Of a stretch of DNA of 64,000 bases, positions 41,780-58,228 are shown one piece after another. A model generated the notes under the pieces. The model was not told the origin of the DNA and searched no databases. It saw only the letters and a program-made list of their open reading frames with translations. The DNA is taken from assembly GCF_030295765.1 (NCBI RefSeq), contig NZ_AP027292.1, forward strand, positions 620,001 through 684,000. Direction: 5' to 3'. A program made the translations under genes and the position numbers. Every line of letters starts with the position of its first letter. Within the stretch, counting starts at the first letter, position 1. Source of the DNA: Neptuniibacter halophilus (GTDB taxonomy: Bacteria > Pseudomonadota > Gammaproteobacteria > Pseudomonadales > Balneatricaceae).

Positions 41780-41783
41780 CGTT

Positions 41784-42695: not shown

Positions 42696-42720
42696 AATCT
42701 TCTCCTTTTCCGCCTGCGGC

Positions 42721-43506: not shown

Positions 43507-43524
43507 GATCTTTTCCTTCACTCA

Positions 43525-43542
43525 CCGCCGGAAACCCGGCGG
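43525..43542 (-). other. Intercistronic hairpin between dmpC and dmpE
   Basis: Perfect 7-bp stem CCGCCGG/CCGGCGG with 4-nt loop, in the gap just before the dmpE ribosome site. No T run; likely an mRNA stability or processing element. Confidence 0.4.
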
Positions 43543-43566
43543 GATAACATTGTGTTTGCTGCAGCC

Positions 43567-45027
43567 TCAGAGCTTGATGCAGATATTTTTCAGCTCGGTA
43601 TAAAACTCCAGACCGTGCACCCCGCCTTCGCGGCCGATGCCGGACTGCTTAGCGCCACCAAACGCGGTGCGCAGATCACGCAGGAACCAGCTGTTAACCC
43701 AACAGATACCCACTTCCAGTTGCTCAGCAACGCGAGATGCACGGGAGGAATTTTCGGTCCACACCGCAGCGGAAAGGCCGTAATCGGTGTCGTTAGCCAG
43801 CGCGATCACCTCCTCTTCTGTATCAAACGGACGGATATGGCAGCAGGGGCCGAAGATCTCTTCGCGAATCACTCGCGCGTCATCCGCCAGACCGGTCCAG
43901 ATGGTTGGTTCTACCCAGGCACCCGCTTCCAGATCTGCTCCCATATCCGGTACACCGCCACCGGTAATCACCTGAGCGCCTTCCTCTACAGCAAGGCGGT
44001 AGTAAGAGAGGACTTTTTCCTTATGCTCCTGACTGACCAGCGGGCCAAAATCCACATCCGCATCCTGCGGGCGCCCCATTTTCAGCTTCTCAGCCCCCGC
44101 TTTCAGGCGCTGAACAAACGCTTCGAAGATCGGCCGTTCCACATAGACCCGTTCGGTTCCAAGACAAACCTGTCCGCAGTTCACAAACGCCGAACGCAGC
44201 GTGCCTTCGATCGCCTTATCCATATCGCAGTCGGCAAAGACGATGCCCGGGTTCTTACCGCCACACTCCAGCGAGATGTTGCGCAGGCCCACAGACGCCG
44301 CGCGCATAATGGTTTCGCCGGTACGGGTTTCACCGGTAAAGGTGATCGCATCCACCCCTTTATGCTCAGTGAGGAAAGCACCGGCAGAGTCCGGGCCAAA
44401 GCCGTGCACGACGTTGTAAACCCCTTCCGGTACACCACACTCGTTCATCACGTCGCCCAGCAGCGTGGCTGTCGCCGGCGTTTCTTCAGAGGGTTTAACC
44501 ACCACGGTGTTGCCACAGGCCAGTGCCGGGCCGACTTTCCAGGTCATCAGCAACAGCGGCAGGTTCCACGGGCTGATCACCGCGATCACTCCTTTGGGAG
44601 TACGGTGGCCGTAGTTGAGTGCGCTGGCCCCGTCCGGGGTGTCCAGCTTGAACGCTTCGGTCGGATGGTTCGCCAGGGTTTCAGAAAATGCTTTGAAATT
44701 GGCTGCGCCACGCGGGATATCGATATGCGAGGCGATCTTGTATGGCTTACCGGTATCTTTACATTCCGCTTCCAGAAACTCGTCGAAGCGCTCGTTGATG
44801 CGATTGGCAACTTTATCCAGCAACGCAATGCGCTGCTGCTGCGTCATTTTTCCCCAGGGGCCCTGCATTGCGGCGCGGGCAGCCTGAACCGCCGCATCCA
44901 CTTCAGCACGACCCGCTTCATGGACCAGCCCGATCAGGCTATTATCCACCGGGTTGCGGTTTTCAAAGGTCTGGCCACGCTCGGTGGTGACAAACTGACC
45001 GTTGATAAAATTTTTGAATTCTTGCAT
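43567..45027 (-). CDS. dmpC: 2-Hydroxymuconic semialdehyde dehydrogenase
   Basis: 486 aa aldehyde dehydrogenase. Oxidises the catechol ring-cleavage product to 2-hydroxymuconate with NAD. Catalytic Glu in ISLECGGKNPGIVF and Cys in FVNCGQVCLGTERVYVERP; cofactor segment ISPWNLPLLLMTWK. Length and position right after the extradiol dioxygenase fit DmpC/XylG. GGAG lies 8 bp before the ATG. Confidence 0.92.
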   Translation of the reverse strand: MQEFKNFINGQFVTTERGQTFENRNPVDNSLIGLVHEAGRAEVDAAVQAARAAMQGPWGKMTQQQRIALLDKVANRINERFDEFLEAECKDTGKPYKIASHIDIPRGAANFKAFSETLANHPTEAFKLDTPDGASALNYGHRTPKGVIAVISPWNLPLLLMTWKVGPALACGNTVVVKPSEETPATATLLGDVMNECGVPEGVYNVVHGFGPDSAGAFLTEHKGVDAITFTGETRTGETIMRAASVGLRNISLECGGKNPGIVFADCDMDKAIEGTLRSAFVNCGQVCLGTERVYVERPIFEAFVQRLKAGAEKLKMGRPQDADVDFGPLVSQEHKEKVLSYYRLAVEEGAQVITGGGVPDMGADLEAGAWVEPTIWTGLADDARVIREEIFGPCCHIRPFDTEEEVIALANDTDYGLSAAVWTENSSRASRVAEQLEVGICWVNSWFLRDLRTAFGGAKQSGIGREGGVHGLEFYTELKNICIKL

Positions 45028-45066
45028 GAACTACACTCCGTAAGATGGCTCTTTGGCAAACAACCG

Positions 45067-45086
45067 CCGGGGCCCGGCAGCCCCGG
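45067..45086 (-). other. Intercistronic hairpin between dmpB and dmpC
   Basis: Perfect 7-bp stem CCGGGGC/GCCCCGG, 6-nt loop, 10 bp past the dmpB stop, followed by GGTTGTTTG on the minus strand. May protect the upstream dioxygenase mRNA or act as a weak attenuator. Confidence 0.4.
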
Positions 45087-45096
45087 CCTTGTGCAA

Positions 45097-46020
45097 TCAG
45101 GTCAGAACTGAGAGGAAACGCTCGTTAAGCACGCGATCGTGATAGAAGATCGCCTTGCCCAGTTCGTCAGCAGTCCAGGTCACCGGCTCGTGATCCGGGT
45201 AGTGATAATCTCCCCCGCAGAACACTTCGTTGCGGTTACCGGACGGGTCAAAGAAATAGATGGTCTTGCCATGAGTCAGGCCATGGCGGGTCGGGCCGAT
45301 ATCCAGTGAGGTATCGGTCATGGAGATCAGGTCAGCGGCGCGCAGCACATCTTCCCAGGTCTCCAGAAAGAACGAGGCGTGGTGGAATTTGCCCGGCTCC
45401 GGGCAGTCAATAAACGCCACATCGTGGGCTTTCATACTCGCCGTAATAAAGGCGGCTACTTTATTCCCATCCGGATCAATCACCTGCTCCGCCAGACTGA
45501 AGCCCAGCACGTCGCGGAACAGCTCATAGGTCTGCTGTACATTCGGTCCGTACAGCAGGCAGTGGTCAAAGCGGGTCGCTTTCATCCCTTTCAGGTTCTG
45601 CGGCCAGGCCTCCGGATTAACGTTAGATAAGCCCCATTTACCGGTTTGCTCTTTCTCGGCATAAAGTTCGAACAGGTGGCCGGATGGCGCCTGAAAACGG
45701 ATGCGGCGACCGCAACCATTCAGTTCGCCCGCCTCAATCTGCTCCACCTCAAGGCCGTGCTCAGTCAGCGCCTGCTGTAACTGCTCCAGTGTCTGGTTAT
45801 CCAGCACTTTGAAGCCCATAAAATCCATTCCCGGATTGTCTGCCGGACGCAGTACCACCGAGAATTTGTCCACTTCGGTCCAGCCTTTGAGGTATACCCG
45901 GCCAGCCTGATCCCGCTCCACCTCAATCAGGCCGAGCAGATCACGATAATGTTTAACCGCTTCTTCAACATCCATTACACGGATCTGAACATGACCCGGA
46001 CGCATTACACCTTTACGCAT
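45097..46020 (-). CDS. dmpB: Catechol 2,3-dioxygenase (extradiol)
   Basis: 307 aa, two vicinal-oxygen-chelate modules. Cleaves catechol next to the diol to 2-hydroxymuconic semialdehyde with non-haem Fe(II). The iron ligands H153 (FDHCLL), H214 (FHHASF) and E265 (NRNEVF) fall at exactly the numbers of P. putida XylE, and the catalytic H199 (MKAHDVAF) is also there. It receives the catechol expected from the iac enzymes. Confidence 0.95.
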
Positions 46021-46042
46021 GGCTTAACCCTCTTAATTGTTT

Positions 46043-46354
46043 TTATGATTCAGTTGTTGGTATTTCGATAAGCAGATCACTGCGCGGAAAAACCCGGCAG
46101 GCCAGCACATAACCTGCAGCGCGCTCCTGCGCGGAGATATGTGCACTGCTCATTGGTTTGGAATAGATCTCACCGGCCAGCAGCCGGATTTTGCAGACGC
46201 CGCAACCACCTCCGCGACAGCCCACCGGGATCGCCGCATATCCCTGCTGCTCCGCACCGCGCAGCAGACTCAGGTTGTCCGGACAGGCAAACCCCTCCGG
46301 CGCCGATAACGCCGCGACATGAAAACGCGTTGCGAAGTTCAGTTCAGTGGTCAT
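46043..46354 (-). CDS. dmpQ: Plant-type [2Fe-2S] ferredoxin (XylT/DmpQ type)
   Basis: 103 aa with cysteines in GCRGGGCGVCKIRLL and ACRVFP, the C-x4-C-x2-C...C cluster pattern. XylT-type ferredoxins re-reduce the iron of catechol 2,3-dioxygenase when it is oxidised during turnover, and xylT/dmpQ stands directly before the dioxygenase gene as here. Starts 5 bp past the stress-protein gene. Confidence 0.88.
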   Translation of the reverse strand: MTTELNFATRFHVAALSAPEGFACPDNLSLLRGAEQQGYAAIPVGCRGGGCGVCKIRLLAGEIYSKPMSSAHISAQERAAGYVLACRVFPRSDLLIEIPTTES

Positions 46355-46359
46355 CGGTT

Positions 46360-46854
46360 TCAGCCCTCAGTTAACGGCACTACCAGCAGTGGCGTCGCCG
46401 TCATCTGCATCACATTCTGGGCCGTGGAGCCGACCAGAAAGCGTCCCAGGCTGGAATGGGTCCGGCTGCGCGTGCCCATTACAATCAGGTCTGCTGCAAC
46501 CTCTTCAGCCACGCTGATAATGGTTTCTGCGGCGGGGCCGGATTCCACCCGGGTCAGCGGTCGCTTCTGCAACGGCAGACGGTCCTGCAGGCAGGTCTGG
46601 TTAAATTCATCGATACGCTGCTCCATCAGGCCGCGAATCTTTTCAATGCCCTGCCCACGCATCGCGCGCAGTTCCGCATCGGCCATGTAGTTTTCCAGCA
46701 ACGCTTCCGTGGCATGGCTGATCGGCTCAATCACGTTGAGAAACACAATCTGCGCTTCATGCTTAAACGCCTCTTTCGCCGCCAGCATGTAGGCCGGCTT
46801 TGAACCCTCACTTAAATCCGAGGCGTAAAGGATGGTTTTAATCTCAGGAATCAT
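46360..46854 (-). CDS. Universal stress protein (UspA family)
   Basis: 164 aa, single Usp domain. TILYASDLSEGSKPAYMLAAK at the start and the ATP-binding MGTRSRTHSSLGRFLVGSTAQNVM near the end. ATG 46854 has AAGGAG 6 bp upstream, so the longer frame to 46923 is not used. It sits in the catabolic operon between the TRAP permease and dmpQ, perhaps a stress guard for aromatic growth. The 200-bp gap before it holds a GTGATGC-N5-GCATCAC dyad (46990-47008) and no gene. Confidence 0.88.
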   Translation of the reverse strand: MIPEIKTILYASDLSEGSKPAYMLAAKEAFKHEAQIVFLNVIEPISHATEALLENYMADAELRAMRGQGIEKIRGLMEQRIDEFNQTCLQDRLPLQKRPLTRVESGPAAETIISVAEEVAADLIVMGTRSRTHSSLGRFLVGSTAQNVMQMTATPLLVVPLTEG

Positions 46855-47056
46855 CTTCAGCTCCTTGTTCATTTCCGCTGATCTCCGGCCTTGTCTGTGC
46901 CCACCCCAGCCCTGCGCTGCCATTTTCAGGCAAGCCGAACCCCTGCAGGGGGCGCCTGGCCTGCATCGCTATCAGAGAGATTGCTTAAGGTGATGCTTAA
47001 CGCATCACAGGGTGTGTTGGGTTAATCAAATAGACTCAGCCAGAGCTCCTGTTGAA

Positions 47057-48373
47057 TTAGCCGACCAGACCGGGCAGGTAGAGTGACAACGCCGGTACCG
47101 TGGCGATCAGCACCAGACGCACAATATCTGCCATCCAGAACGGGGTGACCCCTTTAAAGATGGTGCCCAGTTTCACATCCGGCAGAACGGTCTTCAGAAC
47201 AAATACGTTCAACCCGACCGGCGGTGTGATCAGACTGATCTCGGTGACCACCACCACCAGAATGCCGAACCAGACCAGATCAAACCCCATTGCCTGCACC
47301 AGTGGATAAAACACCGGCACCGTCAGCAGGATCATCGACATACTTTCCAGCACGCAGCCCAGCAGAATGTAGATCGCAATAATCGCCACAATCACCAGTA
47401 CCGGACTCAGATTCAGGCCCAGCACCATATCCCGCAGGGCATCAGGCAATCCCGCCAGATTGATAAAGTTGGAAAACAACACCGCACCGATCACCAGAAA
47501 GAACAGCATCGCTGTGGTACGTACCGAACTCACCAGCACATTCACCAGAATGTTAAAGGTCAGCCTGCGCCGCAGCAGTGCCATAAAGAACGCGCCGGAT
47601 GCACCGATCCCTGCCGCTTCCGTCGGGGTGAAAATACCGCTGTAGATCCCCCCCATGACCACTACAAACAGAAAGCAGATGCCCCAGACATGACGGAACG
47701 CTGACAGGCGCTCAGCCCAGCCCGCCTTCTCCACTGCCGGGCCGCTCTCCGGTTTCAGTTTCACCGTGACCGACACCGCCGCCATATACAGCACAATGCC
47801 AAGGAATCCCGGCAACAGACCGGCGATAAACAGCTTGCCGATATCGGTCTCGGTCATGATGCCGTAGATCACCAGAATCACGCTGGGCGGAATCAGAATC
47901 CCGAGGGTGCCACCGGCCGCAATCGCGCCACTGGCCAGATCATCCGAGTAGTTGTATTTACGCATCGAAGGCATCGCCACCTTAGACATGGTGGCTGCGG
48001 TGGCCATGGAGCTGCCGCATACCGCGGAAAATCCACCGCAGGAAACCACCGTTGCCAGCGCCAGACCACCTCGAAAGTGACCGAGAAAAGCATGCGACGC
48101 CCGGTACAACTGGGCAGATAGCCCCGCTTCGGTAATAAAATTACCCATCAGGATAAACAGCGGCACCACCGACAGGCTGTAGGAGAGACCGGTCTCAAAA
48201 GCCACCTGCGACACCATATTCAGTGCCGCATCCCAGCCGCGACTGTTATCGAACTCCACCTGTTGTACGTAGGCAAAACCCAGTACCCCGATCAGCCCCA
48301 TGGACACCCCCAGAGGTATCCGGGCAAAGATCAGCACCATCAGTGCTGCAAAACCGATCAGACTGATTTCCAT
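47057..48373 (-). CDS. TRAP transporter large permease DctM (aromatic locus)
   Basis: 438 aa, ~12 helices. FILMGNFITEAGLSAQLYRASHAFLGHFRGGLALATVVSCGGFSAVCGSS, GTLGILIPPSVILVIYGI and LITPPVGLNVFVLK are DctM hallmarks. Last of a receptor-Q-M set placed inside the IAA/catechol locus; uptake of IAA or another aromatic acid is the natural guess. Confidence 0.92.
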   Translation of the reverse strand: MEISLIGFAALMVLIFARIPLGVSMGLIGVLGFAYVQQVEFDNSRGWDAALNMVSQVAFETGLSYSLSVVPLFILMGNFITEAGLSAQLYRASHAFLGHFRGGLALATVVSCGGFSAVCGSSMATAATMSKVAMPSMRKYNYSDDLASGAIAAGGTLGILIPPSVILVIYGIMTETDIGKLFIAGLLPGFLGIVLYMAAVSVTVKLKPESGPAVEKAGWAERLSAFRHVWGICFLFVVVMGGIYSGIFTPTEAAGIGASGAFFMALLRRRLTFNILVNVLVSSVRTTAMLFFLVIGAVLFSNFINLAGLPDALRDMVLGLNLSPVLVIVAIIAIYILLGCVLESMSMILLTVPVFYPLVQAMGFDLVWFGILVVVVTEISLITPPVGLNVFVLKTVLPDVKLGTIFKGVTPFWMADIVRLVLIATVPALSLYLPGLVG

Positions 48374-48376
48374 GAT

Positions 48377-48916
48377 CTACATATCCCCTTTAGTTTCACG
48401 TCGGAACAGCCCCTTACCGCCTTTAAACAGCAGCATGCAGAGCAGGGCCAGCGTCGATACCGAACAGCAGGCCGCCATCAGAAACACCAGCCCGGCAAAC
48501 GGGATCTGCAGAATCGCGGTGGTGTCCTCATACTCGTAAGTACGCAGTGCAAACTTCCACAACATCCATGACAACACCGCAAAAGCGATCAGGTTGACCA
48601 GACAGATCAGCAGATTCTGCAGGGGTTTAAGAAAGGCCGGAACGGTCGAATCCAGCAGGTCCACATCCACATGGGCGTTTTCAGCCGTGACCATGGGCAG
48701 GCCCAGAAAAATCAGCGCCGCCAGCAGCAGTTCGGTCACTTCAAAGCCACCAGGCAGTGGCGCGGAAAACAGATCCCGCCCCACCACATCAACCAGCGTG
48801 ACCAGCATCATCAGAAACATGAAGGCTGCAGCGGTGTAGGCCAGCACCCGCTCGAACAGAAATTCGAGCGAGCGCAGCCAGATCTCTGATTTCAGGCAAG
48901 ATGAAATCAAACGCAT
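48377..48916 (-). CDS. TRAP transporter small permease DctQ (aromatic locus)
   Basis: 179 aa, four helices. The family segment FEVTELLLAALIFLGLPMVTAENAHVDVDLLDS is clear. Stands 11 bp after the receptor gene and 3 bp before dctM, a single transcript. Confidence 0.9.
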   Translation of the reverse strand: MRLISSCLKSEIWLRSLEFLFERVLAYTAAAFMFLMMLVTLVDVVGRDLFSAPLPGGFEVTELLLAALIFLGLPMVTAENAHVDVDLLDSTVPAFLKPLQNLLICLVNLIAFAVLSWMLWKFALRTYEYEDTTAILQIPFAGLVFLMAACCSVSTLALLCMLLFKGGKGLFRRETKGDM

Positions 48917-48927
48917 AGGATGGCCCC

Positions 48928-49944
48928 TTAGTGACCGTAGCTGGCGGTAATCTGACGCAGTTCCGTGAGGGCCGATTTACCATCAACCCCACGCTTTTCT
49001 GCCTCTTCCATCCAGCTCTGCTGCAGCGTTGCGGTACGCTCTTTCAGGGCTGTAATAAAGGCATCATCCGCCACAGACAGATCATTGCCTTTGGCTTTGA
49101 GTGCTGACGTAGCGGCTGCATCAGCCTGATCCCAGGCTTTACCTGCCATCTTCGCGAAGGCTTCGCCGGAGACACTCATGATCGCTTTCTGATCCGCTTC
49201 GGAAAGCTCACTGAAACGCCCTTTGTTCATCACCAGAAAGAAGCTGATGTTATAGAGACCGCCCGGCACCATGGTGGTGTGGGTCACAAGATCCTGAATT
49301 TTAAACGCCGTTACCGACTCCATCGGCAGCAGCGTTCCGTCAGCTACACCATGAGAGAGCAGTTCATAGCTCTGGGAAGCTGGCTTGAGCAGTGGTACTG
49401 CATCCAGTGCACCGGCCACATCGTTAACCACACCACCACCGACACGCATCTTCATACCGGACAGGTCATCGATTGCTGCCACCGTTTTCTTGCTGTTATG
49501 AATCTGTCCCGGACCATGGGTAAACAGGCTGAGCAACTGGGTGCCTTTATGTTCATTGGCCTGCGCCAGATATTTCTGGTGCACCCGCCAGTAAGCGACA
49601 GACAGCGCTTCGGCACTGTTACCACTGAACGGAAACTCGACCGCTTTGGTCATCACGAAGCGGCCCGGTGTGTAACCGTGCACGCTGTAGGTAATATCCG
49701 CCAGACCATCACGGGCGATATCGTAGTGAACCTTGGGGTGACCCAGCGACTTGGCGAGGATATTCACCTTAACCCGGCCCTCAGTCACCTCCTCGACCTG
49801 CTGGGTCCAGGGGACAATCATATCGGTCACCACCGGGTGCGTCGGTGGCAGCCAGGATGACAGGGTCAGTTTGGTTTCCGCAGCCACCAGAGTACTGGTG
49901 GTGATGACTGCACCGGTTAGCACTGCTTTCAGAACCTTTCTCAT
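48928..49944 (-). CDS. TRAP transporter periplasmic receptor DctP (aromatic locus)
   Basis: 338 aa with signal peptide (VLKAVLTGAVITTSTLVAA). DctP fold: KLTLSSWLPPTHPVVTDMIVPWTQQVEEVT, GMKMRVGGGVVNDVAGALDAVPLLKPASQSYELLSHGVADGTLLP. Unlike the two receptors at 32-36 kb the canonical carboxylate-Arg segment reads MRVGGG, and the sequences are not close, so substrate differs. An IacR-type palindrome lies ~83 bp before its start. AGGAG precedes ATG. Confidence 0.9.
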   Translation of the reverse strand: MRKVLKAVLTGAVITTSTLVAAETKLTLSSWLPPTHPVVTDMIVPWTQQVEEVTEGRVKVNILAKSLGHPKVHYDIARDGLADITYSVHGYTPGRFVMTKAVEFPFSGNSAEALSVAYWRVHQKYLAQANEHKGTQLLSLFTHGPGQIHNSKKTVAAIDDLSGMKMRVGGGVVNDVAGALDAVPLLKPASQSYELLSHGVADGTLLPMESVTAFKIQDLVTHTTMVPGGLYNISFFLVMNKGRFSELSEADQKAIMSVSGEAFAKMAGKAWDQADAAATSALKAKGNDLSVADDAFITALKERTATLQQSWMEEAEKRGVDGKSALTELRQITASYGH

Positions 49945-50025: not shown

Positions 50026-50043
50026 AAGTTGAATTTTCAACTA
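50026..50043. promoter_or_regulatory. IacR-type palindrome before the TRAP receptor gene
   Basis: AGTTGA-ATTT-TCAACT (50027-50042), same half-sites and 4-bp spacer as the sites before iacH. It lies in the iacF-TRAP gap, 82-99 bp upstream of the receptor ATG. Confidence 0.6.
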
Positions 50044-50079
50044 TTTTTTCACCCAGGCAGACGCGCTTCCAAAGGCCGG

Positions 50080-51036
50080 TCAGATATCCAGAACCAGTCG
50101 CTCCGTTTTCGAACGCGAACAACACACCGCGATCTGGTCGTTATCTTCTTTCTCTTCATCCGTCAGGAAGTGATCTTTGTGATCCGGAGTACCTTCCAGT
50201 ACATCGCAAAGGCAGGTACCGCAAACGCCCTGTTCGCAGGAAACCTCAACCTTGATCCCTGCGCCGGCCAGTGCATCGGTGATCGACTGACCCTCTTCAA
50301 CGCGAACCGTAACCCCGCTCTGGCGCGCCTCCACTTCAAACGCCTCGCCACTGCTGTCGACTTCCGCATTGAAGTATTCAAAGTGAACATTCTCAGCCGC
50401 ATAGCCCTGCTCTTTGGCGCTGTTCATCACCCAGTCCATAAAACCGGAAGGCCCGCAGACATAAACATGCCCGTTGGCTTCATAACCCGCGAACACCTGT
50501 TCCGGGTTAAAGCGCTGTTCATCAGCCTGATCATCAAAGTGCAGGTGCAGTTGCTGCGGGAATTCAGCCTGCAGCTCATCCAGAAATGCAGCGCTGGAGC
50601 GACTACGGCAGCAGTAATGCAGCTCAAAGGATTTGCCGGCCGCTTTCAGGGTGTAGGCCATGGTCAGCATCGGTGTAATACCGATACCGCCGCCCACCAG
50701 AATGCTGTGCTCTGCATTCAGATCGAGCGGAAAATGATTACGCGGGGCGCTGATCTGCAGCGTCATGCCCGGCTGGAACGTTTCATGGATGGTGCGGGAA
50801 CCACCACGGGACTCAGGATCATTCAGAATACCGAGGCGGTAACAGTCACGGCTGCCCGGCGCATTACTGAGTGAATACTGGCGGATCAGCTCAGGGGTAA
50901 TATGCACATCGATATGGGCGCCCGCTTCAAATTCCGGCAACGCCTCACCGCTGACACTGATAAATTCAAATACCGATACCCCGGCGGCCTGATCTTCGCG
51001 ACGCTTGATCATCACGTCGATTTTTTCATTGTTCAT
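50080..51036 (-). CDS. iacF: IacF-like reductase with C-terminal [2Fe-2S] ferredoxin domain
   Basis: 318 aa of the phthalate-dioxygenase-reductase/VanB type: flavin-binding RQYSLSNAPGS, NAD-binding LVGGGIGITPMLTMAYTL, and ferredoxin cysteines CEQGVCGTCLCDVLEG with a late AVCCSRSK. Passes electrons from NADH to the Rieske oxygenase IacCD. A GTG at 51045 is in frame; ATG 51036 with GGGTGA upstream is chosen. Last gene of the contiguous iacHABICDEF series. Confidence 0.88.
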   Translation of the reverse strand: MNNEKIDVMIKRREDQAAGVSVFEFISVSGEALPEFEAGAHIDVHITPELIRQYSLSNAPGSRDCYRLGILNDPESRGGSRTIHETFQPGMTLQISAPRNHFPLDLNAEHSILVGGGIGITPMLTMAYTLKAAGKSFELHYCCRSRSSAAFLDELQAEFPQQLHLHFDDQADEQRFNPEQVFAGYEANGHVYVCGPSGFMDWVMNSAKEQGYAAENVHFEYFNAEVDSSGEAFEVEARQSGVTVRVEEGQSITDALAGAGIKVEVSCEQGVCGTCLCDVLEGTPDHKDHFLTDEEKEDNDQIAVCCSRSKTERLVLDI

Positions 51037-51064
51037 ACTATTCACCCACAGATTCTTTTTAATT

Positions 51065-51083
51065 CCCGGGGCTGAGCCCCGGG
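51065..51083 (-). other. Intercistronic hairpin between iacE and iacF
   Basis: Perfect 8-bp stem CCCGGGGC/GCCCCGGG with loop of three. No T run follows, so it is more likely a processing or stability element than a full terminator. Confidence 0.45.
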
Positions 51084-51120
51084 GCCTGAGCGGGGATCTC
51101 CGCCCCCTTTCGCTGATCCC

Positions 51121-51864
51121 TCAGCGCATGAAAATACCGCCGTTAATATCCCAGGCAGCGCCAGTGACGAAAGACGCCTCCCGACTGGCCAGTTTGGTCA
51201 CCACATCCGCCACAAAGTCGGCACTGCCCAGCTCTTTCACCGGAATCATCTCGTTGATAATGGTTTCCAGTTTGTCGGCCGGAACCAGCTCACGAACCGA
51301 AGGCAGATCCATCGGCCCGGGTGCCACGGCGTTCACCGTTATCCCATCGGCCGCCAGATTGCGGGCAAAGATCTTGGTCATGGTGAGGATCGCGCCTTTA
51401 CTGGAGCCATAGTGAGCGCCGGATGCGGCGCCCCCATTCTGCCCCGCCAGCGAGGCCATATTGACGATGCGGCCATAGCCACGCCCGGCAAAGTACTGAC
51501 CAAACACCTGACAACCAAAGAAGGTGCCACGCTGGTTAACGGCGGTAACCCGATCAAACTCTTCAGGTGTGATCTCCATCACCGGGGTGGTCAGGGTCAT
51601 CGCGGCGTTGTTGATCAGCGCATCCACCTGACCGAAGTTCTCACAGGCCTGCTTCAGTGCGGTTTCGAAGTTCTCTTTCGCCAGCACATCCAGCGCCAGC
51701 GCCAGCATCCGCTCGCCGTTCGGCGCAATCTCCGCCGCAGAACGGGCCACCGCATCCTGATTGGCATCGGTCATAACAACCGCAAACCCGGCTTTATACA
51801 GATTTTCGGCAATCGCTTTGCCCAGTCCCTGAGCCGCGCCGGTTACTAATGCAACTTGAGTCAT
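51121..51864 (-). CDS. iacE: IacE-like short-chain dehydrogenase/reductase
   Basis: 247 aa. Rossmann motif TGAAQGLG at 8-15, catalytic S138, Y152 and K156 (NMASLAG, HYGSSKGA), NNAA at 85-88. In iac pathways IacE takes part in conversion of the oxidised IAA intermediate on the way to dioxindole-acetic acid. GGAG before the ATG; 11 bp from iacD. Confidence 0.88.
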   Translation of the reverse strand: MTQVALVTGAAQGLGKAIAENLYKAGFAVVMTDANQDAVARSAAEIAPNGERMLALALDVLAKENFETALKQACENFGQVDALINNAAMTLTTPVMEITPEEFDRVTAVNQRGTFFGCQVFGQYFAGRGYGRIVNMASLAGQNGGAASGAHYGSSKGAILTMTKIFARNLAADGITVNAVAPGPMDLPSVRELVPADKLETIINEMIPVKELGSADFVADVVTKLASREASFVTGAAWDINGGIFMR

Positions 51865-51875
51865 CCGATCGCTCC

Positions 51876-52355
51876 TTACAGGATGTAGCCGATACTGCTG
51901 AGGTAAGCATTGGCGTTTTGCAGACGGATCACCTTCTCCTCAATCTGAAAACCGTTATCGGTTTTCTTCAGGGTGTAGGTCAGGTCTGCCGGGTAGGTTT
52001 TCAGGTTGCCGTGACGACACTCGCTCAGGTACATGGAGCAACGCACTGTGACAAAAGCCGCGCCTTCATCCAGAATGCGGAAGCGCCCCATCTGGCGCAC
52101 GGTTTTATCGGTGGTCTGGGTCGACACCGCTTCACCGCTGTTGAGTCGCGCTACACGCAGTTCGCGCATCTCTTTTTTGTCGTAGGCATAATTCAGGCTG
52201 TTGGCGAAGTCGCTCTCTTGCGGATCGATGGGAACGATGTAGGTACCGGTTTCAGTCCACAGATCCAGCCAGCCCTGATAATCTTCAAAATCGAGCATAT
52301 CGGCTTCGCTGTCGATAAATGCCCGCACCTGATTCAGCATGTTCAGATCACTCAT
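51876..52355 (-). CDS. iacD: IacD-like Rieske dioxygenase small (beta) subunit
   Basis: 159 aa, ring-hydroxylating dioxygenase beta fold (cone-shaped, no metal). RAFIDSEADMLDFEDYQGWLDLWTETGTYIVPI at the start and GRFRILDEGAAFVTVRCSMYLSE are typical. Structural partner of IacC. GGGGAG before the ATG. Confidence 0.88.
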   Translation of the reverse strand: MSDLNMLNQVRAFIDSEADMLDFEDYQGWLDLWTETGTYIVPIDPQESDFANSLNYAYDKKEMRELRVARLNSGEAVSTQTTDKTVRQMGRFRILDEGAAFVTVRCSMYLSECRHGNLKTYPADLTYTLKKTDNGFQIEEKVIRLQNANAYLSSIGYIL

Positions 52356-52374
52356 TGCTATTCTCCCCTGCCAA

Positions 52375-53652
52375 TCAGGCTGTCATCATTTTCTTGTAAT
52401 ACTGATACGCTGAACGCATACCGGTTTCCGAACAGACCGCACCGGAGACGTTGCCATCCGGGCTTTCCTTCAGGTTGCCCATGCCCCGGTTAACCAGAAT
52501 CCACTCATCCTTACCTGCTTTTGAACCTTTCTGTACCCGCTCCCAGGCTTCCGCATCATCCGGCGTACCAAAGCCCATCGGCCCCTGAAAATGTTCGTGC
52601 AGACGCAGACGCATCTGGTTGAACGCCGCCGGCGCGCCTTCGCCACCAATCGCCACGTGGTGAATTTCGGTTTCTTCTACACTGACCGGCGCCAGCACCC
52701 GGAAGAACGCCATGGAGCAGGCGACATTCGGGAACAGGTTCAGGTTGAAACCGGAACCGCCCACCGCACGTACCATGCGACGTACTTCCAGATCAGAGTG
52801 TCCCTCTGCGGCCAGTTCTTCAGCCAGCGCCTGAAAACGCTCAGGAATCGGTGCATCCAGATCTTTTTCCAGATCCACCAGCTCAGGGATCATCACCATC
52901 ACGCTGTGGCCGTTACCCAGATCTTCAACGTGGCCTTCGCCATCCAGAAAATCGAAGATCTCCGCAGTCTGATCATCCACCGAGGAAACAAACGATTTGT
53001 GCACAATCGGGAAATGGTAAGCATCGGTAGTGTTTTCCAACTGGATTTTCCAGTTACCCGGGAAACGGAAACGGTGATCGCCCAGCACTTTCAGCGGATA
53101 ACCGCCGCCCTGCTTAACAAACAGGTCGATCCACTTTTTCGCGCCGCCGAGGAAATCTTCCAGTGGCTCAATATCTTCTTTGAAGGTCGCGAAGATCAGC
53201 CCCTGATAGGTTTCAAAACGCAGGCTGATCAGCGGGTAGTCCTCTTTGTTGATCACGCCTTCGTACTCTTCCGGCTTCGGAATCGCACGCAGCGCACCAT
53301 CGAGGGAGTAACCCCAGCCGTGGTAAGGACACATAAAACTTTTGGTTTTACCGCGCTTGCCTTCGCACACGGTCGCCGCACGATGACGACAGCGGTTCAG
53401 CAGCACGTGGATATTCTTTTTCCGGTCGCGGCTGACAATCACAGAGTGACGTCCGATCATCGCGGTTTTGTAAGAGCCCACATCCGGGATCTCACTTTCG
53501 TGGCCTACCCAGACCCAGGTGTTGTTGAAAACTTTATCCAGTTCTTCTTCGAAGATTTCCGGATTGGAGTAGATTGAGGTGTGAACCTTATCTTCCATAA
53601 TCAGGCTGTCGTAATCCGCAGCCACGTTTTTAATGTTGATTAAATCGGTCAT
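52375..53652 (-). CDS. iacC: IacC-like Rieske dioxygenase large (alpha) subunit
   Basis: 425 aa. Rieske [2Fe-2S] ligands C88, H90 (NRCRHRA) and C108, H111 (CPYHGWGY); mononuclear iron site in NTTDAYHFPIVHKSF with a later Asp. With IacD and IacF it is expected to open the oxidised indole to catechol. ATG 53652 with GGAAAG upstream is preferred over an in-frame GTG at 53664. Confidence 0.92.
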   Translation of the reverse strand: MTDLINIKNVAADYDSLIMEDKVHTSIYSNPEIFEEELDKVFNNTWVWVGHESEIPDVGSYKTAMIGRHSVIVSRDRKKNIHVLLNRCRHRAATVCEGKRGKTKSFMCPYHGWGYSLDGALRAIPKPEEYEGVINKEDYPLISLRFETYQGLIFATFKEDIEPLEDFLGGAKKWIDLFVKQGGGYPLKVLGDHRFRFPGNWKIQLENTTDAYHFPIVHKSFVSSVDDQTAEIFDFLDGEGHVEDLGNGHSVMVMIPELVDLEKDLDAPIPERFQALAEELAAEGHSDLEVRRMVRAVGGSGFNLNLFPNVACSMAFFRVLAPVSVEETEIHHVAIGGEGAPAAFNQMRLRLHEHFQGPMGFGTPDDAEAWERVQKGSKAGKDEWILVNRGMGNLKESPDGNVSGAVCSETGMRSAYQYYKKMMTA

Positions 53653-53676
53653 CTGACTTTCCACTTATTATTCTGC

Positions 53677-54198
53677 TCACTCCGGTACCGGCAGAGCGGC
53701 TGCCTGATCCCAGGGAGTCTGTACAGGTCGGTTAAACAAACTTTCAGTGCGAAAATGGCTGATCTGCCATTCGCCCTCTGCGCAGATAAAATCCACTTCG
53801 AGCCGGGCACTGCTCAACTGCGAGCGGCCGTCACTGAAGGTTGCAGTCTGTAAAAGCACCCAGTGGCCGGTAGCCTGTTCCTCCTTCACCCGGATCAACT
53901 CACTGGTGAGGAAATGAACATTTACGGCGAAGTGCGCCGGTGGCTGGGTGTACTTGTGAAACATCTCGGCGATGGCGCTGCGCCCCTGCATTCGACCGAA
54001 AGTCTTGCTGTAGCGACTACCGATCCCTTCCCAGATCGCATCCTCACTGAACAGCGCCAGCAGCGGCTCCAGATCAAAGCCCACTGTCAACTGGTCGCAG
54101 AGCGTCATATAGCAATTCATGCAGGCTTTAACCGCATGTTCGTCTTCAAATCGCTTAAGGCGCTTAGCCAGTGAAGCAACGGTTTCGCGTGCTGCCAT
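53677..54198 (-). CDS. iacI: IacI-like SnoaL/NTF2-fold protein
   Basis: 173 aa, NTF2-like cone fold: MTLCDQLTVGFDLEPLLALFSEDAIWEG, GRMQGRSAIAEMFHKYTQPPAHFAVNVHFLTSE. Its function in iac clusters is not settled. Placed between iacB and iacC exactly as iacI in P. putida 1290. ATG 54198 has GAGGA 8 bp upstream; the longer frame to 54285 would overlap iacB by most of its end. Confidence 0.82.
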   Translation of the reverse strand: MAARETVASLAKRLKRFEDEHAVKACMNCYMTLCDQLTVGFDLEPLLALFSEDAIWEGIGSRYSKTFGRMQGRSAIAEMFHKYTQPPAHFAVNVHFLTSELIRVKEEQATGHWVLLQTATFSDGRSQLSSARLEVDFICAEGEWQISHFRTESLFNRPVQTPWDQAAALPVPE

Positions 54199-54208
54199 CG
54201 TTCTGTCC

Positions 54209-54568
54209 TCAGCCCGGTACGACCAGTTCACGGCCGATACGGGCCTCAACTTTGCAGTACTTCCAGAGTTTGTAGGTACCGTCACCTACCGGCGTGCTGC
54301 GAAACAGGTTGCAACCCTCAATCACGGTTTCCAGATCGGGTACATCGGCCATGATGTAAGCGGTCCATGGGGATGAGGTGGAGGGGCCGACCTGAATCCG
54401 GTCGTCATCCATAATGCCCAGTACGTTGACACCCGGCAGTTCAGCAATCCCCTGCATCATGGCGCTGAACGCCTGCCATACATCACCCATTTCGCTCTGT
54501 GGCGCGTCCATAAAGTTCTGGTTAACACCAATACAGAACAGCACTCGATGCGTTGTTGTCTCACTCAT
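54209..54568 (-). CDS. iacB: IacB-like small protein
   Basis: 119 aa, cytoplasmic, alpha/beta (dimeric ferredoxin-like) in appearance: HRVLFCIGVNQNFMDAPQSEMGD, AYIMADVPDLETVIEGCNLFRS. Position between iacA and iacI is that of iacB. No catalytic motif recognised. AGGAG before the ATG. Function is not established. Confidence 0.78.
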   Translation of the reverse strand: MSETTTHRVLFCIGVNQNFMDAPQSEMGDVWQAFSAMMQGIAELPGVNVLGIMDDDRIQVGPSTSSPWTAYIMADVPDLETVIEGCNLFRSTPVGDGTYKLWKYCKVEARIGRELVVPG

Positions 54569-54604
54569 TGTTTTTCTCCTGAGAATGGTTGCCTGATCGC
54601 TGAA

Positions 54605-55753
54605 TCAGAGATATCCGGGGAGCGGCTTATGTCCGAAGAACATCGCTCCTGCGTTTTTAAATGTGATGGCGCCCATAAAGGCGTGCTGCGTGCACATCAT
54701 CGAATCACGCATAATTCGGGAAAGCGGGTGGCTGTTATAAGCGCCGGTCATTCCTGCGACCTGATAAGTGGTGCGGATCGCTTCGGCACATTCATGGGTC
54801 AGGTTCGATGCCGCCAGGCGAATCATGCTGATCTGATGATCGGATGGCTCGCCGCCCGCCTGAATGGCATCCCAGGCATCCCCGGTCACTTCGTAGAAGA
54901 AGGCACGGGAGGAGCGCACTTTGGCTTCCGCCTTGGCGACTTCAATCTGCACGTGTTCGCGCTCGCCCAGATTGGGCGCACCGGTCACAGAAACCCGTCC
55001 GGCTGCCATATCCTGCACAACGTCCAGCGCTTCCCGGGCCAGACCCAGCGTGGTCACCGCCAGTACCTGTGCGGCAAACGCCAACGACGGGTAACGGAAG
55101 AAAGGCTCATCCAGATTCGGTTTTCCGCCCCGGGTGAAGGTCCACTCTTCGGGCACAAACACATCTTTAACCACCAGATCGTGGCTGCCGGTACCGACCA
55201 TGCCGACTACATCCCAGGCAAACTCCACATCCACCTGCTCGCGCGGCATCACCGCCATCCGGGGCAGGGACTCACCGTCGTCAGGCATAATGCCGACACC
55301 ACACAGCGAAGCCCCCATGCAGCCACTGCCAAACTGCCAGCGACCATTGACCACAAAACCGTTATCCATACGTCTGGCCGGCTGTGGTGGGAAAATACCT
55401 CCGGCGAACACCACATCGGGTGTGTCTTTCCAGACCTTCTCGATCGTCTCCATCGGCAGCGATGCCAGATAAGCCGGGTTCATACCAAAACTGGCGACCC
55501 AACCGGCAGAACCATCAGCAGCCGAGATCGCTTCAACCATCTGCAGAAACTCTGCCGGTGACTTCTCATCCCCCCCGAAGCGCTTCGGCACCAGTGCACG
55601 ATAAACACCAATCTGCTTAAACTTTTCGATCACGTCCTGAGAGATATACATCTGCGCTTCAAATTCATCGCGGCGCTCACGTATCTCTGCCAGTAAGGCA
55701 TCAAATACGGCCTCACCACCCCAGGACTCTTTGTTTATTACACTGGAAGCCAT
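54605..55753 (-). CDS. iacA: IacA-like flavin-dependent monooxygenase (acyl-CoA dehydrogenase fold)
   Basis: 382 aa. Acyl-CoA dehydrogenase-like two-component monooxygenase (class D), relative of HpaH/C2 and HsaA: RALVPKRFGGDEKSPAEFLQMVEAISAADGSAGWVASFG, GRWQFGSGCMGASLCGVGIM, and C-terminal AFMGAITFKNAG. Performs the first oxidation of IAA using reduced flavin from IacG. 36 bp separate it from iacB and 32 bp from iacH. Confidence 0.9.
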   Translation of the reverse strand: MASSVINKESWGGEAVFDALLAEIRERRDEFEAQMYISQDVIEKFKQIGVYRALVPKRFGGDEKSPAEFLQMVEAISAADGSAGWVASFGMNPAYLASLPMETIEKVWKDTPDVVFAGGIFPPQPARRMDNGFVVNGRWQFGSGCMGASLCGVGIMPDDGESLPRMAVMPREQVDVEFAWDVVGMVGTGSHDLVVKDVFVPEEWTFTRGGKPNLDEPFFRYPSLAFAAQVLAVTTLGLAREALDVVQDMAAGRVSVTGAPNLGEREHVQIEVAKAEAKVRSSRAFFYEVTGDAWDAIQAGGEPSDHQISMIRLAASNLTHECAEAIRTTYQVAGMTGAYNSHPLSRIMRDSMMCTQHAFMGAITFKNAGAMFFGHKPLPGYL

Positions 55754-55785
55754 ATCGACTCACCCCATCCGTTCTTATTGGTTTG

Positions 55786-56925
55786 TTAAACAAATGTGCT
55801 CATTTTCTTCGCCAGAGCGCAGAGCAGTTCATCAGCCCCTTTGCGGCCAACCAACTGCAACCCGACCGGTAAACCCGATGCGCTCTGCAGAGGAATTGAA
55901 ATCGCCGGATGCCCGCTCAGATTGAATGGCCGCAGCAGAAAAGAGAGACGCAGATCCATCTCCCCTGCCTCGGCCTGTTGCAGGGTCATCGGGAACACCG
56001 GCAGACTCGGCATCAACAGGCAGTCGACCTCCGCCAGTAACTGATCAATGGCGTCGCTGAAACGCTGCCCCTGCTGATGGGCTTCAGCCACCGCAGCATC
56101 GGAGGTCTCCGCCGCTTTCTGTAAGCGCTCAGCCACATCGGCCCCGACCCGACCGGAAGCGAGCAGATCACCGCAGGCATTCCACGTCTCGCGGTTGATC
56201 AAGACCATGCCCGCACTGTAGGCCGACTCCATATCCGGCAGTTGCACAGAGACCTGTTGCGCAGGCAGACGCCCGGTCAATTCACTGATCGTTGCCCGGA
56301 TCTCGGCAATCGCCTCGACATCAGCAACGCCCAGCACACAATCTTCCAACTCAATATCCGGCAGCGCGTTAAACGAGGGATCAATAATCTTCATTCCCTG
56401 CTCCAGCATGGTTGCGCTGTCCGCCAGTACGCCAACGCAATCCAGCGAGGATTCAGCAGGCATCACGCCCTCACGGCTGACACGTCCGTAGGTAGGTTTG
56501 ATACCGTAGACACCACAACAGGCTGCAGGCAGGCGAACCGAACCACCGGTATCCGTGCCAATAGCAAAATCTGCCAGCCCTGCGGCCACTGCGACCGCCG
56601 AACCACTGGAAGAGCCACCGGGAATTAACTGAGGGTATTTATGATTCAGCGGGGTACCTGCCCATGGGTTGATACCGCTCATGCCGAACGCCAGTTCATG
56701 GGTGTTGGTTTTACCGACCAGCCGGCAGCCCTGCTGCAAAACCCGGTCGACTACCGCAGCATTGCAACGGGCAGGCTCTCTGTCGGCCAGTGCCGCACAG
56801 CCTGCAACGGTCGGAAAACCAGCAATATCGATCGTATCTTTGACCGCTACCGTCAGTTTGTTGCGGTTCTCACCACTCACTGCTCCGGCCCTTAAGAAAC
56901 GATGAAAAAATACACTCACAGGCAT
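55786..56925 (-). CDS. iacH: IacH-like amidase (AS family)
   Basis: About 379 aa. Lys of the triad in LTVAVKDTIDIAGF; signature PGGSSSGSAVAVAAGLADFAIGTDTGGSVRLPA has both Ser. Acts late in the IAA branch, probably on an oxidised indole amide bond. The frame is open to ATG 56982, but the predicted promoter would start RNA near 56987 and leave almost no leader; ATG 56925 (MPVSVFF) is therefore preferred, though its ribosome site is close. First gene of the operon. Confidence 0.85.
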   Translation of the reverse strand: MPVSVFFHRFLRAGAVSGENRNKLTVAVKDTIDIAGFPTVAGCAALADREPARCNAAVVDRVLQQGCRLVGKTNTHELAFGMSGINPWAGTPLNHKYPQLIPGGSSSGSAVAVAAGLADFAIGTDTGGSVRLPAACCGVYGIKPTYGRVSREGVMPAESSLDCVGVLADSATMLEQGMKIIDPSFNALPDIELEDCVLGVADVEAIAEIRATISELTGRLPAQQVSVQLPDMESAYSAGMVLINRETWNACGDLLASGRVGADVAERLQKAAETSDAAVAEAHQQGQRFSDAIDQLLAEVDCLLMPSLPVFPMTLQQAEAGEMDLRLSFLLRPFNLSGHPAISIPLQSASGLPVGLQLVGRKGADELLCALAKKMSTFV

Positions 56926-56993
56926 CACCCTCTGCTGGTTTGATCCGACCTTACATCCCCAAACAGGCGGCAGGTCATTCATTGCTCCCTATC

Positions 56994-57023
56994 AATATAT
57001 TGATCGATTAGTTGAAATGTCAA
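56994..57023 (-). promoter_or_regulatory. Sigma-70 promoter of the iac operon
   Basis: On the minus strand a perfect TTGACA (57023-57018), 18-bp spacer, and TATATT (56999-56994). The -35 box lies inside the first palindrome, so binding of IacR there would block polymerase. Confidence 0.65.
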
Positions 57024-57028
57024 CTAAT
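57007..57028. promoter_or_regulatory. IacR-type palindrome A (iacH promoter)
   Basis: Perfect dyad ATTAGTTGA-AATG-TCAACTAAT. It covers the -35 element of the iacH promoter. Confidence 0.7.
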
Positions 57029-57050
57029 TTTAGTTGAACTTTCAACCATT
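57029..57050. promoter_or_regulatory. IacR-type palindrome B (iacH promoter)
   Basis: TTTAGTTGA-ACTT-TCAACCATT, same spacing with one half-site mismatch. Centred 22 bp (two helical turns) from palindrome A, so two dimers could sit side by side. From here to iacR (57051-57256) the DNA is AT-rich with no further gene. Confidence 0.65.
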
Positions 57051-57256
57051 TATGCAGTGCAAAAAACAGGCAAAACCAAACAAAATTAATATTTATCAAT
57101 CAGTTAAAAATAAAAATATTTTTTAAAATTTGCAGAAACAAAACACAAAAAATCAAACTTACCCATGACTAAATCGTTCGCATAAGCGCAGTGAGTAGCG
57201 TAAAATCTGATCCTGTCAGCACCCTGATCCGGTGCCAGTAACTGAATGAGCACAGC

Positions 57257-57736
57257 ATGACATCGAGAGATAAAAAGCTTGAGAAATACCTGCCCTCAAG
57301 CGCCTCCTTCCAGATTGATGAGTTCCCCTTCTACTGGGTCGCTAAACTCAATGCCCTCTACAGCCGGGAGATGGAGAAAACCCTGAAACCGCTGAATATG
57401 GATATCTCTCGCTGGCGTGTAGCCATGCTGCTGCGGGTTCATGGTGATCTGAGTATCAAAGATATAACCGAGCATGCCCTTGCCAAACTGCCGACCATCA
57501 CCAAAATCGTTTACAAAATGCGGGATGAAGGCCTGGTTGATGTGCAACCCTCCGAGCTCGATGGGCGGGTCAGCATCGTATCGCTGACCGAACAGGGCCG
57601 GGACAAAGTGGAACAGGTGCGCCAGCAAACCCACCACCTGTTTACCGAAGCCTTCTCCGGCATGACAGAAACCCAGATCAACCGCAGTACCGCCTTACTG
57701 AAAAAATACTTCGAAAACCTTTCCGAAGTGGAGTAA
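57257..57736 (+). CDS. iacR: MarR-family regulator IacR
   Basis: 159 aa winged-helix repressor: PLNMDISRWRVAMLLRVHGDLSIKDITEHALAKLPTITKIVYKMRDEGLVDVQPSELDGRVSIVSLTEQG carries recognition helix and wing. MarR regulators next to iac genes bind IAA-type ligands and release DNA. Divergent from iacH, with palindromes in the shared gap. An IacR-type palindrome also lies 50 bp past its stop, before the globin gene. Confidence 0.88.
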   Translation: MTSRDKKLEKYLPSSASFQIDEFPFYWVAKLNALYSREMEKTLKPLNMDISRWRVAMLLRVHGDLSIKDITEHALAKLPTITKIVYKMRDEGLVDVQPSELDGRVSIVSLTEQGRDKVEQVRQQTHHLFTEAFSGMTETQINRSTALLKKYFENLSEVE

Positions 57737-57785
57737 GGCCATCCCCTGAGGGTTTAAGTATTCCTGACGCACGTCTCAATGACAA

Positions 57786-57811
57786 AATTTAGTTGAACTT
57801 TCAACTAAATT
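57786..57811. promoter_or_regulatory. IacR-type palindrome C (globin promoter region)
   Basis: The best copy: AATTTAGTTGA-ACTT-TCAACTAAATT, a perfect 11-4-11 dyad with the same core as the sites before iacH. It ends 39 bp before the globin ATG. Confidence 0.7.
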
Positions 57812-57850: not shown

Positions 57851-58228
57851 ATGCAAACCCCTTATGAACTGATCGGCGGTGCTGCCGGCGTCAAAGCGCT
57901 GGCGGAAGAATTTTACCGGGTAATGGACAGCCAGCACGCAGCCCGGGGCATCCGGGCCATGCACGGCAAAGACCTGTCGGCGGTGTCTGATAAGCTCTAC
58001 CAGTTTCTCTCGGGCTGGTTTGGCGGACCTCAGCTTTACCTGAAACAGCACGGTACTATCTGCCTGAGTTCACCCCACGCAAAATACGCCATCGGCAGCG
58101 CTGAACGGGATGCATGGCTACAGTGTATGGACCTTGCGCTGGATAATCTGAACAGTTCACCGGAACTGAAAAGTATGCTTAAAGACCCCCTGTTTGATCT
58201 GGCAGATATGATGACCAACCGGGATTAA
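57851..58228 (+). CDS. Group II truncated haemoglobin (TrHbO type)
   Basis: 125 aa. FYRVM (Tyr22, B10), GWFGGPQLYLKQHG (typical group II E-F region), proximal His76 in SPHAKYAIG, and Trp89 (G8) in RDAWLQCM. Binds oxygen or nitric oxide with haem. Follows iacR by 114 bp and has the strongest IacR-type palindrome in front, so it may supply oxygen to, or protect, the oxygenases of the locus. That link is inference. Confidence 0.88.
   Translation: MQTPYELIGGAAGVKALAEEFYRVMDSQHAARGIRAMHGKDLSAVSDKLYQFLSGWFGGPQLYLKQHGTICLSSPHAKYAIGSAERDAWLQCMDLALDNLNSSPELKSMLKDPLFDLADMMTNRD

What the first reader, a model, noticed from the sequence alone, without database searches (positions are those of the whole stretch)
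50026..57811. Shared palindrome TAGTTGA-N4-TCAACTA at four places defines a probable IacR regulon
Seen: perfect or near-perfect dyads at 57007-57028, 57029-57050 (before iacH), 57786-57811 (before the globin gene) and 50026-50043 (before the TRAP receptor). All have 4-bp spacers. The first covers the -35 box of a good promoter. I found no copy inside the coding regions I read. This is the pattern expected of one MarR repressor.
Basis: partly seen in the sequence, partly recalled or inferred. Interest (0 to 1): 0.85.

Follow-up and report, generated by a model that had tools for sequence, protein, structure and literature searches.

The report
Auxin-sensing repressor's DNA switch sites
A marine bacterium that eats the plant hormone auxin appears to use one repressor protein, binding one short mirror-image DNA word, to switch its auxin-breakdown genes, an uptake system and, unexpectedly, a small haemoglobin; relatives carry the same word in front of the same breakdown genes.

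Summary
The four dyads are real. In the 4.11-Mb genome (inferred Neptuniibacter) the only copies of TAGTTGA-N4-TCAACTA with 0 or 1 mismatch are these four. A matrix trained only on relatives' iac promoters ranks exactly these four first in the window, 10 bits above the fifth. Equivalent dyads precede the iac operon in family relatives where iacR adjoins it (one degraded), and iac genes in Pseudomonas, Klebsiella, beta- and alphaproteobacteria. In 21 of 21 relatives' sites the dyad embeds a -35: TTGAC[AG]-N17-[GA]ATT[AC]T. The neighbouring MarR is an IacR orthologue. The globin site recurs in 3 of 3 other iacR-bearing Neptuniibacter; the dctP site in 5 of 20 relatives, mainly Amphritea. In other genera the same globin sits in or near the iac/catechol cluster without an operator: two arrangements, one association. 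Binding, IAA release and expression are untested. IacR control of iac genes is known; the comparison-defined operator and globin membership look new. In passing: a flavin reductase fused to an IAA-receptor-like MarR domain.

The parts
57009..57026 (.). proposed IacR operator O1 (perfect dyad), overlaps the -35 of the iac operon promoter
57031..57048 (.). proposed IacR operator O2 (one mismatch), 22 bp from O1; with O1 four half-sites at 11-bp pitch
   Evidence: same 22-bp tandem in four loci of genus g2 (Amphritea; L067, L068, L069, L071)
57790..57807 (.). proposed IacR operator O3 (perfect dyad), 43 bp before the globin ATG
   Evidence: equivalent sites in L062, L063, L065
50026..50043 (.). 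proposed IacR operator O4 (one mismatch), 81 bp before dctP, between iacF and dctP
   Evidence: equivalent sites in L066, L067, L068, L069, L071
56994..57023 (-). sigma-70-like promoter of the iac operon, TTGACA-18-TATATT (17 bp to ATATAT)
   Evidence: 11 of 12 matches; layout in relatives
57257..57736 (+). iacR, MarR-family regulator, orthologue of crystallised IacR proteins
57177..57206 (+). promoter-like sequence before iacR (TTCGCA-18-TAAAAT, 9 of 12), no dyad over it
57851..58228 (+). truncated haemoglobin, nearest solved relatives 2xyk and 4uur
55786..56925 (-). iacH amidase (open frame extends to 56982; start at 56925 more likely)
50080..55753 (-). iacA, iacB, iacI, iacC, iacD, iacE, iacF (IAA to catechol). 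Names recalled from gene order and products; a Klebsiella record shows the same order after iacR: amidase, acyl-CoA dehydrogenase family, 'IacB protein', NTF2 family, ring-hydroxylating dioxygenase
   Evidence: gaps -77 to 75 bp
47057..49944 (-). TRAP transporter dctP-dctQ-dctM (dctQ and dctM named by eye)
38560..46923 (-). universal stress protein, ferredoxin, catechol 2,3-dioxygenase, 2-hydroxymuconic semialdehyde dehydrogenase, further meta-pathway genes (named by eye), flavin reductase with C-terminal MarR-like domain
   Evidence: gap dctM-usp 133 bp, last gap 467 bp

Best explanation
The dyads are operators of IacR. Without indole-3-acetic acid (IAA) an IacR dimer sits on TAGTTGA-N4-TCAACTA; at the iac promoter this hides the -35 hexamer TTGACA, and a second dimer can bind two helical turns upstream. 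IAA binds the conserved pocket, IacR lets go, and iacHABICDEF is transcribed. The same switch at 50026 controls dctPQM, and perhaps the downstream catechol genes; at 57790 it controls a truncated haemoglobin that may supply O2 to, or protect, the oxygenases of the pathway. Shown: motif, rarity, placement, conservation, IacR orthology, globin-IacR co-occurrence. Inferred: binding, release by IAA, repression, transcription units, role of the globin.
For: Only copies with 0-1 mismatch in the genome. Matrix from 19 distinct relatives' sites: window scores 29.8, 29.1, 20.1, 19.7, fifth 9.5, best of 100 random first-order Markov sequences 16.0. Of 80 named IacR loci 33 reach that random best: 20 of 28 in the family and 13 of 52 outside; 10 of those 13 lie directly before iacH or iacI. 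Klebsiella plasmid L186 has a dyad between iacR and the amidase. 21 of 21 relatives' iac sites show TTGAC[AG]-N17-[GA]ATT[AC]T. IacR's nearest solved relatives are 7kua, 7l19, 7l1i; Tyr35, Trp53 and Arg54 match IAA contacts named in PMC9613470. Globin at 60% identity or more: 11 genomes, all among the 30 with IacR, 0 of 86 without (cut set at the gap between 60 and 53% after seeing the table). In Marinobacterium marinum and M. sediminicola, whose iac cluster lacks an adjacent iacH, a perfect dyad precedes an unlinked amidase.
Against: No binding or expression data. No consensus promoter listed at dctP or globin. dctP site absent in 15 of 20 relatives, including two Neptuniibacter (L062, L065); two of the five present score only 14.5 and 16.0, about the random best. 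Globin has no own operator in 7 of 7 loci of other genera; at the looser E 1e-25 a globin is in 22 of 30 IacR genomes but also in 15 of 86 without. Some IacR homologues have no dyad nearby, mostly where no iac genes adjoin; L060/L116 has the operon with only a degraded site (13.4). Other loci without adjacent iacH (L075, L076/L091, L078) show no dyad before a distant amidase at exact match. Kinship was not corrected for.
Confidence: 0.86

Rival explanations
1. Another regulator, not IacR, binds the dyads; iacR is only a neighbour.
For: No binding data. In three other Neptuniibacter a second iacR-like gene lies between globin and iacH. Two other weak MarR matches exist in the genome.
Against: Motif follows IacR across 116 genomes. 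The window genome has one IacR; the other two matches are 21% and 26% identical. The dyad lies between or beside iacR and iac genes in several orders of bacteria.
Confidence: 0.07
2. The iac sites are IacR operators, but the dctP and/or globin sites are inert, or act otherwise (for example as a block to read-through transcription or as activator sites).
For: No consensus promoter listed at either; dctP site in 5 of 20 relatives; in other genera the globin lacks an operator.
Against: Both window sites score above every random sequence (20.1 and 29.1 against 16.0); globin site kept in 3 of 3 Neptuniibacter relatives, with a shared AATGTTATNCT tail in two and a similar one in the window; dctP gaps are bimodal, 14.5-21.4 in five and -2.6 or less in fifteen.
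Confidence: 0.2
3. The dyads are RNA hairpins (terminators or attenuators).
For: 57780-57830 (z -5.6) and the tandem (z -5.2) fold unusually well as RNA, as any long palindrome would; a T-run follows the dyad at 50026 on the + strand.
Against: The terminator scan does not list them; at 50026 the genes run on the - strand and that fold is ordinary (z 0.25 and -1.07); the iac dyad overlaps the -35, upstream of transcription; bases, not only pairing, are conserved.
Confidence: 0.03
4. Chance similarity of AT-rich intergenic dyads.
For: At 3 mismatches the genome shows no excess.
Against: 0 or 1 mismatch only here; a matrix from relatives selects the same four.
Confidence: 0.01

Closest known systems
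IacR of Pseudomonas putida 1290, Enterobacter soli and Acinetobacter baumannii (PDB 7kua, 7l19, 7l1i), repressor of iac loci
   Same: Sequence orthologue, next to an iac operon, pocket residues kept. PMC9613470 (passages and section 7 seen) states that IacR represses the iac locus in E. soli. PMC9711524 (passages seen) says an IacR operator was previously identified, citing Shu et al. 2015.
   Different: The published operator letters were not seen, so identity with this dyad is untested. No listing or passage seen mentions a globin or TRAP target of IacR.
IadR (MarR_73) of Variovorax, with its 24-bp operator between iadR and iadA (PMC9613470)
   Same: MarR repressor with an operator ahead of an auxin catabolic operon, released by IAA (section 7 seen).
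   Different: iad, not iac, type; only distant to this protein (E 1.4e-9); operator letters not seen.
MarR-family operators generally, 16-20-bp palindromes (PMC10458429, passages seen)
   Same: 18-bp palindrome over promoter elements.
   Different: Sequence particular to IacR; in the window and four relatives arranged as four half-sites at 11-bp pitch.
Marinomonas iac cluster (PMC11373566, parts 1 and 2 of 3 seen)
   Same: Marine relative with iacR and iacABICDEFG.
   Different: ABC-type transporter genes instead of TRAP, no globin in its table, iacH only 28.6% identical to that of P. putida.

Membership tests
IacR (MarR family auxin repressor) | MarR winged-helix family | tested here: met
   PF12802 and PF01047 above cut-off
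IacR (MarR family auxin repressor) | closest to IacR rather than IadR structures | tested here: met
   7kua 1.8e-41, 7l19 4.8e-35, 7l1i 4.1e-25 against 7kfo 1.4e-9
IacR (MarR family auxin repressor) | IAA-contacting residues | tested here: met
   Tyr35 aligns with P. putida Tyr44, Trp53-Arg54 with MarR_73 Trp45-Arg46, assuming a 24-residue tag in the PDB chains; with that offset the MarR_73 contacts Tyr15, Ala18, Ser28, His32, Trp45 and Arg46 fall on the right letters of the 7kfo chain. Tyr35 and Arg54 are invariant in 15 sequences, Trp53 is not
IacR (MarR family auxin repressor) | encoded beside an iac operon | tested here: met
IacR (MarR family auxin repressor) | binds IAA | not testable with these tools
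   needs calorimetry or similar
MarR-type operator | 16-20-bp palindrome overlapping a promoter | tested here: met
   iac site over the -35
MarR-type operator | promoter overlap at the dctP and globin sites | tested here: inconclusive
   consensus scans list none there; conserved downstream tail at globin
IacR regulon | site conserved before the iac operon in relatives | tested here: met
IacR regulon | site conserved before globin and dctP in relatives | tested here: inconclusive
   globin: 3 of 3 other iacR-bearing Neptuniibacter but 0 of 7 loci of other genera; dctP: 5 of 20 loci having iacF and dctP
IacR regulon | IAA-dependent derepression through IacR | not testable with these tools
   needs transcripts in wild type and iacR deletion
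Truncated haemoglobin | Bac_globin family | tested here: met
   PF01152 8.6e-29; nearest structures 2xyk, 4uur; 'group II' would be recalled

The most novel reading that the evidence does not exclude
In these marine bacteria a dedicated haemoglobin is part of the auxin-catabolic programme: an IAA-sensing repressor induces a truncated haemoglobin together with the O2-consuming IAA and catechol oxygenases, so that it feeds them O2 or shields them from NO; and the flavin reductase of the pathway is itself gated by a fused IAA-receptor-like domain.
Probability: 0.4. Interest if true: 0.65.

Novelty: new member of a known kind. Interest (0 to 1): 0.52.

Why it matters
It gives a precise, testable operator for IacR that recurs across several orders of Proteobacteria, so iac regulons can be predicted from sequence and auxin sensors built with a defined site. 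It also predicts that a plant hormone controls a bacterial haemoglobin, which no listing or passage seen here reports (searches; PMC open-licence library only).

Tried and rejected
Chance: rejected. RNA hairpins: rejected by position and scans. Extra targets in the genome: the five 2-mismatch places were inspected, none convincing; weaker places were not. Autoregulation of iacR in the window: no dyad near its promoter-like sequence, though some Marinobacterium loci (L081, L084, L085) carry one just before iacR, so it seems lineage-specific. The exact-pattern hit in M. stanieri (L097) lies beside ORFs that I read as repeat-rich (RHS-like) and looks like chance; the two hits in genomes without IacR (G016, G098) were fetched (L098, L099), scanned and not followed further. 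The pattern TCAASTR was widened after seeing relatives, so the 20-of-30 figure is partly circular; the 2-of-86 figure is not. The reversed-pattern control hit 15 of 116 genomes, 2 of the 30 with IacR. Of 25 plasmid-collection records four loci were scanned: L185 (A. baumannii, about 100 bp upstream of iacR) and L186 (Klebsiella) have the dyad; L187 (A. baumannii) and L188 (Thioclava) do not. Papers on IacR in yeast circuits (PMC8242030, PMC9711524, passages) name but do not print the operator in the passages seen.
Full report
OBSERVATION. Two are exact to TAGTTGA-N4-TCAACTA, two have one mismatch, all have 4-bp spacers and all lie between genes. A count at up to 3 mismatches is barely above chance in the window (4 against 1.20; 4 of 100 shuffles reach 4) and not above it in the genome (61 places against 178 for the reversed pattern). 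At 0 and 1 mismatch the whole 4.11-Mb genome has only these four, with 0.008 and 0.36 expected. The five 2-mismatch places are two inside long ORFs and three asymmetric places outside long ORFs.

INDEPENDENT SUPPORT. I took 21 sites (19 distinct) before the iac operon in family relatives, none from the window genome, made a symmetric matrix and scanned the window: 29.8 (57009), 29.1 (57790), 20.1 (50026), 19.7 (57031), then 9.5 (61055, inside a coding frame); the best of 100 random first-order Markov sequences scored 16.0.

CONSERVATION OF THE IAC SITE. 30 of 116 family genomes (own included) have an IacR relative at E 1e-20 or better. The exact pattern TAGTTGA-N4-TCAASTR is in 20 of these and in 2 of the other 86 (Fisher 4e-13). 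The pattern was widened after seeing relatives and kinship is not corrected, so the number overstates independence. Among 80 named IacR loci (the scan found 131 relatives and kept 80), 33 reach the random best: 20 of 28 in the family and 13 of 52 outside (family membership assigned by me from record titles and matching contig lengths). The family hits overlap the training set. Of the 8 family misses, L116 has the iac operon with a degraded site (13.4); in the other seven one search shows no iac operon beside iacR within the flank. Of the 13 outside hits, 10 lie directly before iacH or iacI (Pseudomonas L120, L128, L135, L151, L156, L169; Curvibacter L168; Sphaerotilus L171; Derxia L179; Rhodospirillaceae MAG L180); for L132, L134 and L173 I did not identify the gene served. 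Of the 39 outside misses, 37 show no other iac gene at 40% identity or more in the flanks; L123 and L126 have iacE-iacF but not the operon's head. Klebsiella plasmid locus L186 has a dyad between iacR and the amidase; one A. baumannii locus (L185) has one about 100 bp before iacR; A. baumannii L187 and Thioclava L188 have none.

PROMOTER LOGIC. In 21 of 21 training sites the dyad contains TTGAC[AG], followed after 17 bp by [GA]ATT[AC]T. The C after TTGA is invariant in the 19 distinct sites although the dyad's symmetry does not demand it, as expected of a -35 hexamer embedded in an operator. The window promoter keeps the -35 (TTGACA) but has ATATAT at 17 bp and TATATT at 18. The two dyads before iacH form four half-sites at 11-bp pitch; four loci of genus g2 (Amphritea) keep the same 22-bp tandem and a fifth has 23 bp. 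iacH probably starts at 56925 rather than 56982, as relatives' start codons align next to Met20.

THE REGULATOR. The protein at 57257-57736 is a MarR-family member closest to the crystallised IacR proteins. Tyr35 and Arg54 are invariant in 15 sequences and, with Trp53, correspond to IAA-contacting residues named in PMC9613470 (passages and section 7). The window genome has no second IacR; three Neptuniibacter relatives have one downstream of the globin.

THE DCTP SITE. In 20 relatives with both iacF and dctP (L060, L062, L065-L069, L071, L073, L075-L081, L083-L086) the best score in the gap is 14.5-21.4 in five (Pontibacterium L066; genus g2 L067, L068, L069, L071) and -2.6 or less in fifteen. 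Two Neptuniibacter (L062, L065) lack it. In the window dctPQM, usp, ferredoxin and the meta-cleavage genes run in one direction with gaps of 133 bp or less until the reductase (467 bp), so this site may govern uptake plus catechol breakdown. No consensus promoter was listed there.

THE GLOBIN SITE. The globin is a truncated haemoglobin. Relatives at 60% identity or more occur in 11 genomes, all among the 30 with IacR, 0 of 86 without (p 7e-8; the cut was set after seeing the gap from 60 to 53%). Within the genus 4 of 4 with IacR and 0 of 7 without have a match. In three Neptuniibacter the globin follows iacR and has a dyad (25.7, 30.4, 24.1). In seven loci of other genera (L092, L219-L223, L230) it has none within 250 bp (best -7.8); in six of these it lies past the flavin reductase at the end of the iac/catechol cluster, the seventh is on a short contig with similar upstream sequence; in L220 an MFS transporter gene precedes it (my reading). 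So the globin stays tied to auxin catabolism either by cluster position or, in Neptuniibacter, by its own operator next to iacR. This is the strongest argument that it belongs to the programme; its role (O2 supply, NO protection) is conjecture.

A FURTHER TARGET ELSEWHERE. In Marinobacterium marinum and M. sediminicola the iac cluster lacks an adjacent iacH (L080, L077), and the only other exact copies of the pattern in those genomes precede an unlinked amidase 29-30% identical to iacH (L095, L096). Others without adjacent iacH (L075, L076/L091, L078) showed no such copy; the extra one in M. stanieri (L097) is not before an amidase.

KNOWN AND NEW. That IacR represses iac genes is in print (PMC9613470, seen in part; there for E. 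soli, and IAA release shown for IadR). An IacR operator has been used in yeast circuits, citing Shu et al. 2015 (PMC9711524, passages); I did not see its letters, so this dyad may coincide with it. No listing or passage seen describes a globin or TRAP transporter under IacR; the library is open-licence PMC only and most listed papers were not opened. I file this as a new member of a known kind, with an unusual regulon content.

STATUS. Shown: motif, rarity, placement, conservation, co-occurrence, orthology. Inferred: DNA binding, IAA release, repression, operon limits, globin function. Organism: Neptuniibacter by the tool's genus grouping with contigs whose lengths match named Neptuniibacter records.

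I reran the counts: the -35/-10 layout is now given for all 21 sites, the dctP gaps are scored in all 20 relatives, and the looser globin count is added.

Noticed in passing
38560-39492 (-): Flavin reductase fused to a C-terminal MarR-like domain. The whole protein matches the reductase of p-hydroxyphenylacetate hydroxylase (5zc2); the C-terminal domain alone matches, at E 1e-5 or better, only four MarR chains (3cdh 6.6e-16, 7kki, 7kfo, 7krh), of which 3cdh and 7kfo are the IadR-type IAA receptors of PMC9613470; equivalents of Tyr15, Ser28, Trp45 and Arg46 are kept and His32 is Tyr (read off the alignment). It may be an IAA-gated reductase.
   Followed up: partly
L062, L063, L065 (Neptuniibacter relatives): A second iacR-like gene lies between globin and the iac operon; the window genome lacks it. 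Whether the two repressors share operators is unknown.
   Followed up: partly
L095 site 6037; L096 site 6004: Perfect IacR-type dyad before an unlinked amidase in two Marinobacterium whose iac clusters lack an adjacent iacH.
   Followed up: partly
L074 site 2307: Amphritea opalescens has a second iac-like cluster (iacA 58%) with a one-mismatch dyad before iacA and a second iacR about 7 kb away.
   Followed up: no
G000 contig 2, 17331-17693 (L231): A second truncated globin, 46% identical, on the smaller contig of the same genome, without an IacR-type dyad within 250 bp upstream.
   Followed up: no
window 57009-57048: Half-sites at a constant 11-bp pitch, so a dimer could also meet the outward-facing register TCAACTA-N4-TAGTTGA across the junction.
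   Followed up: no
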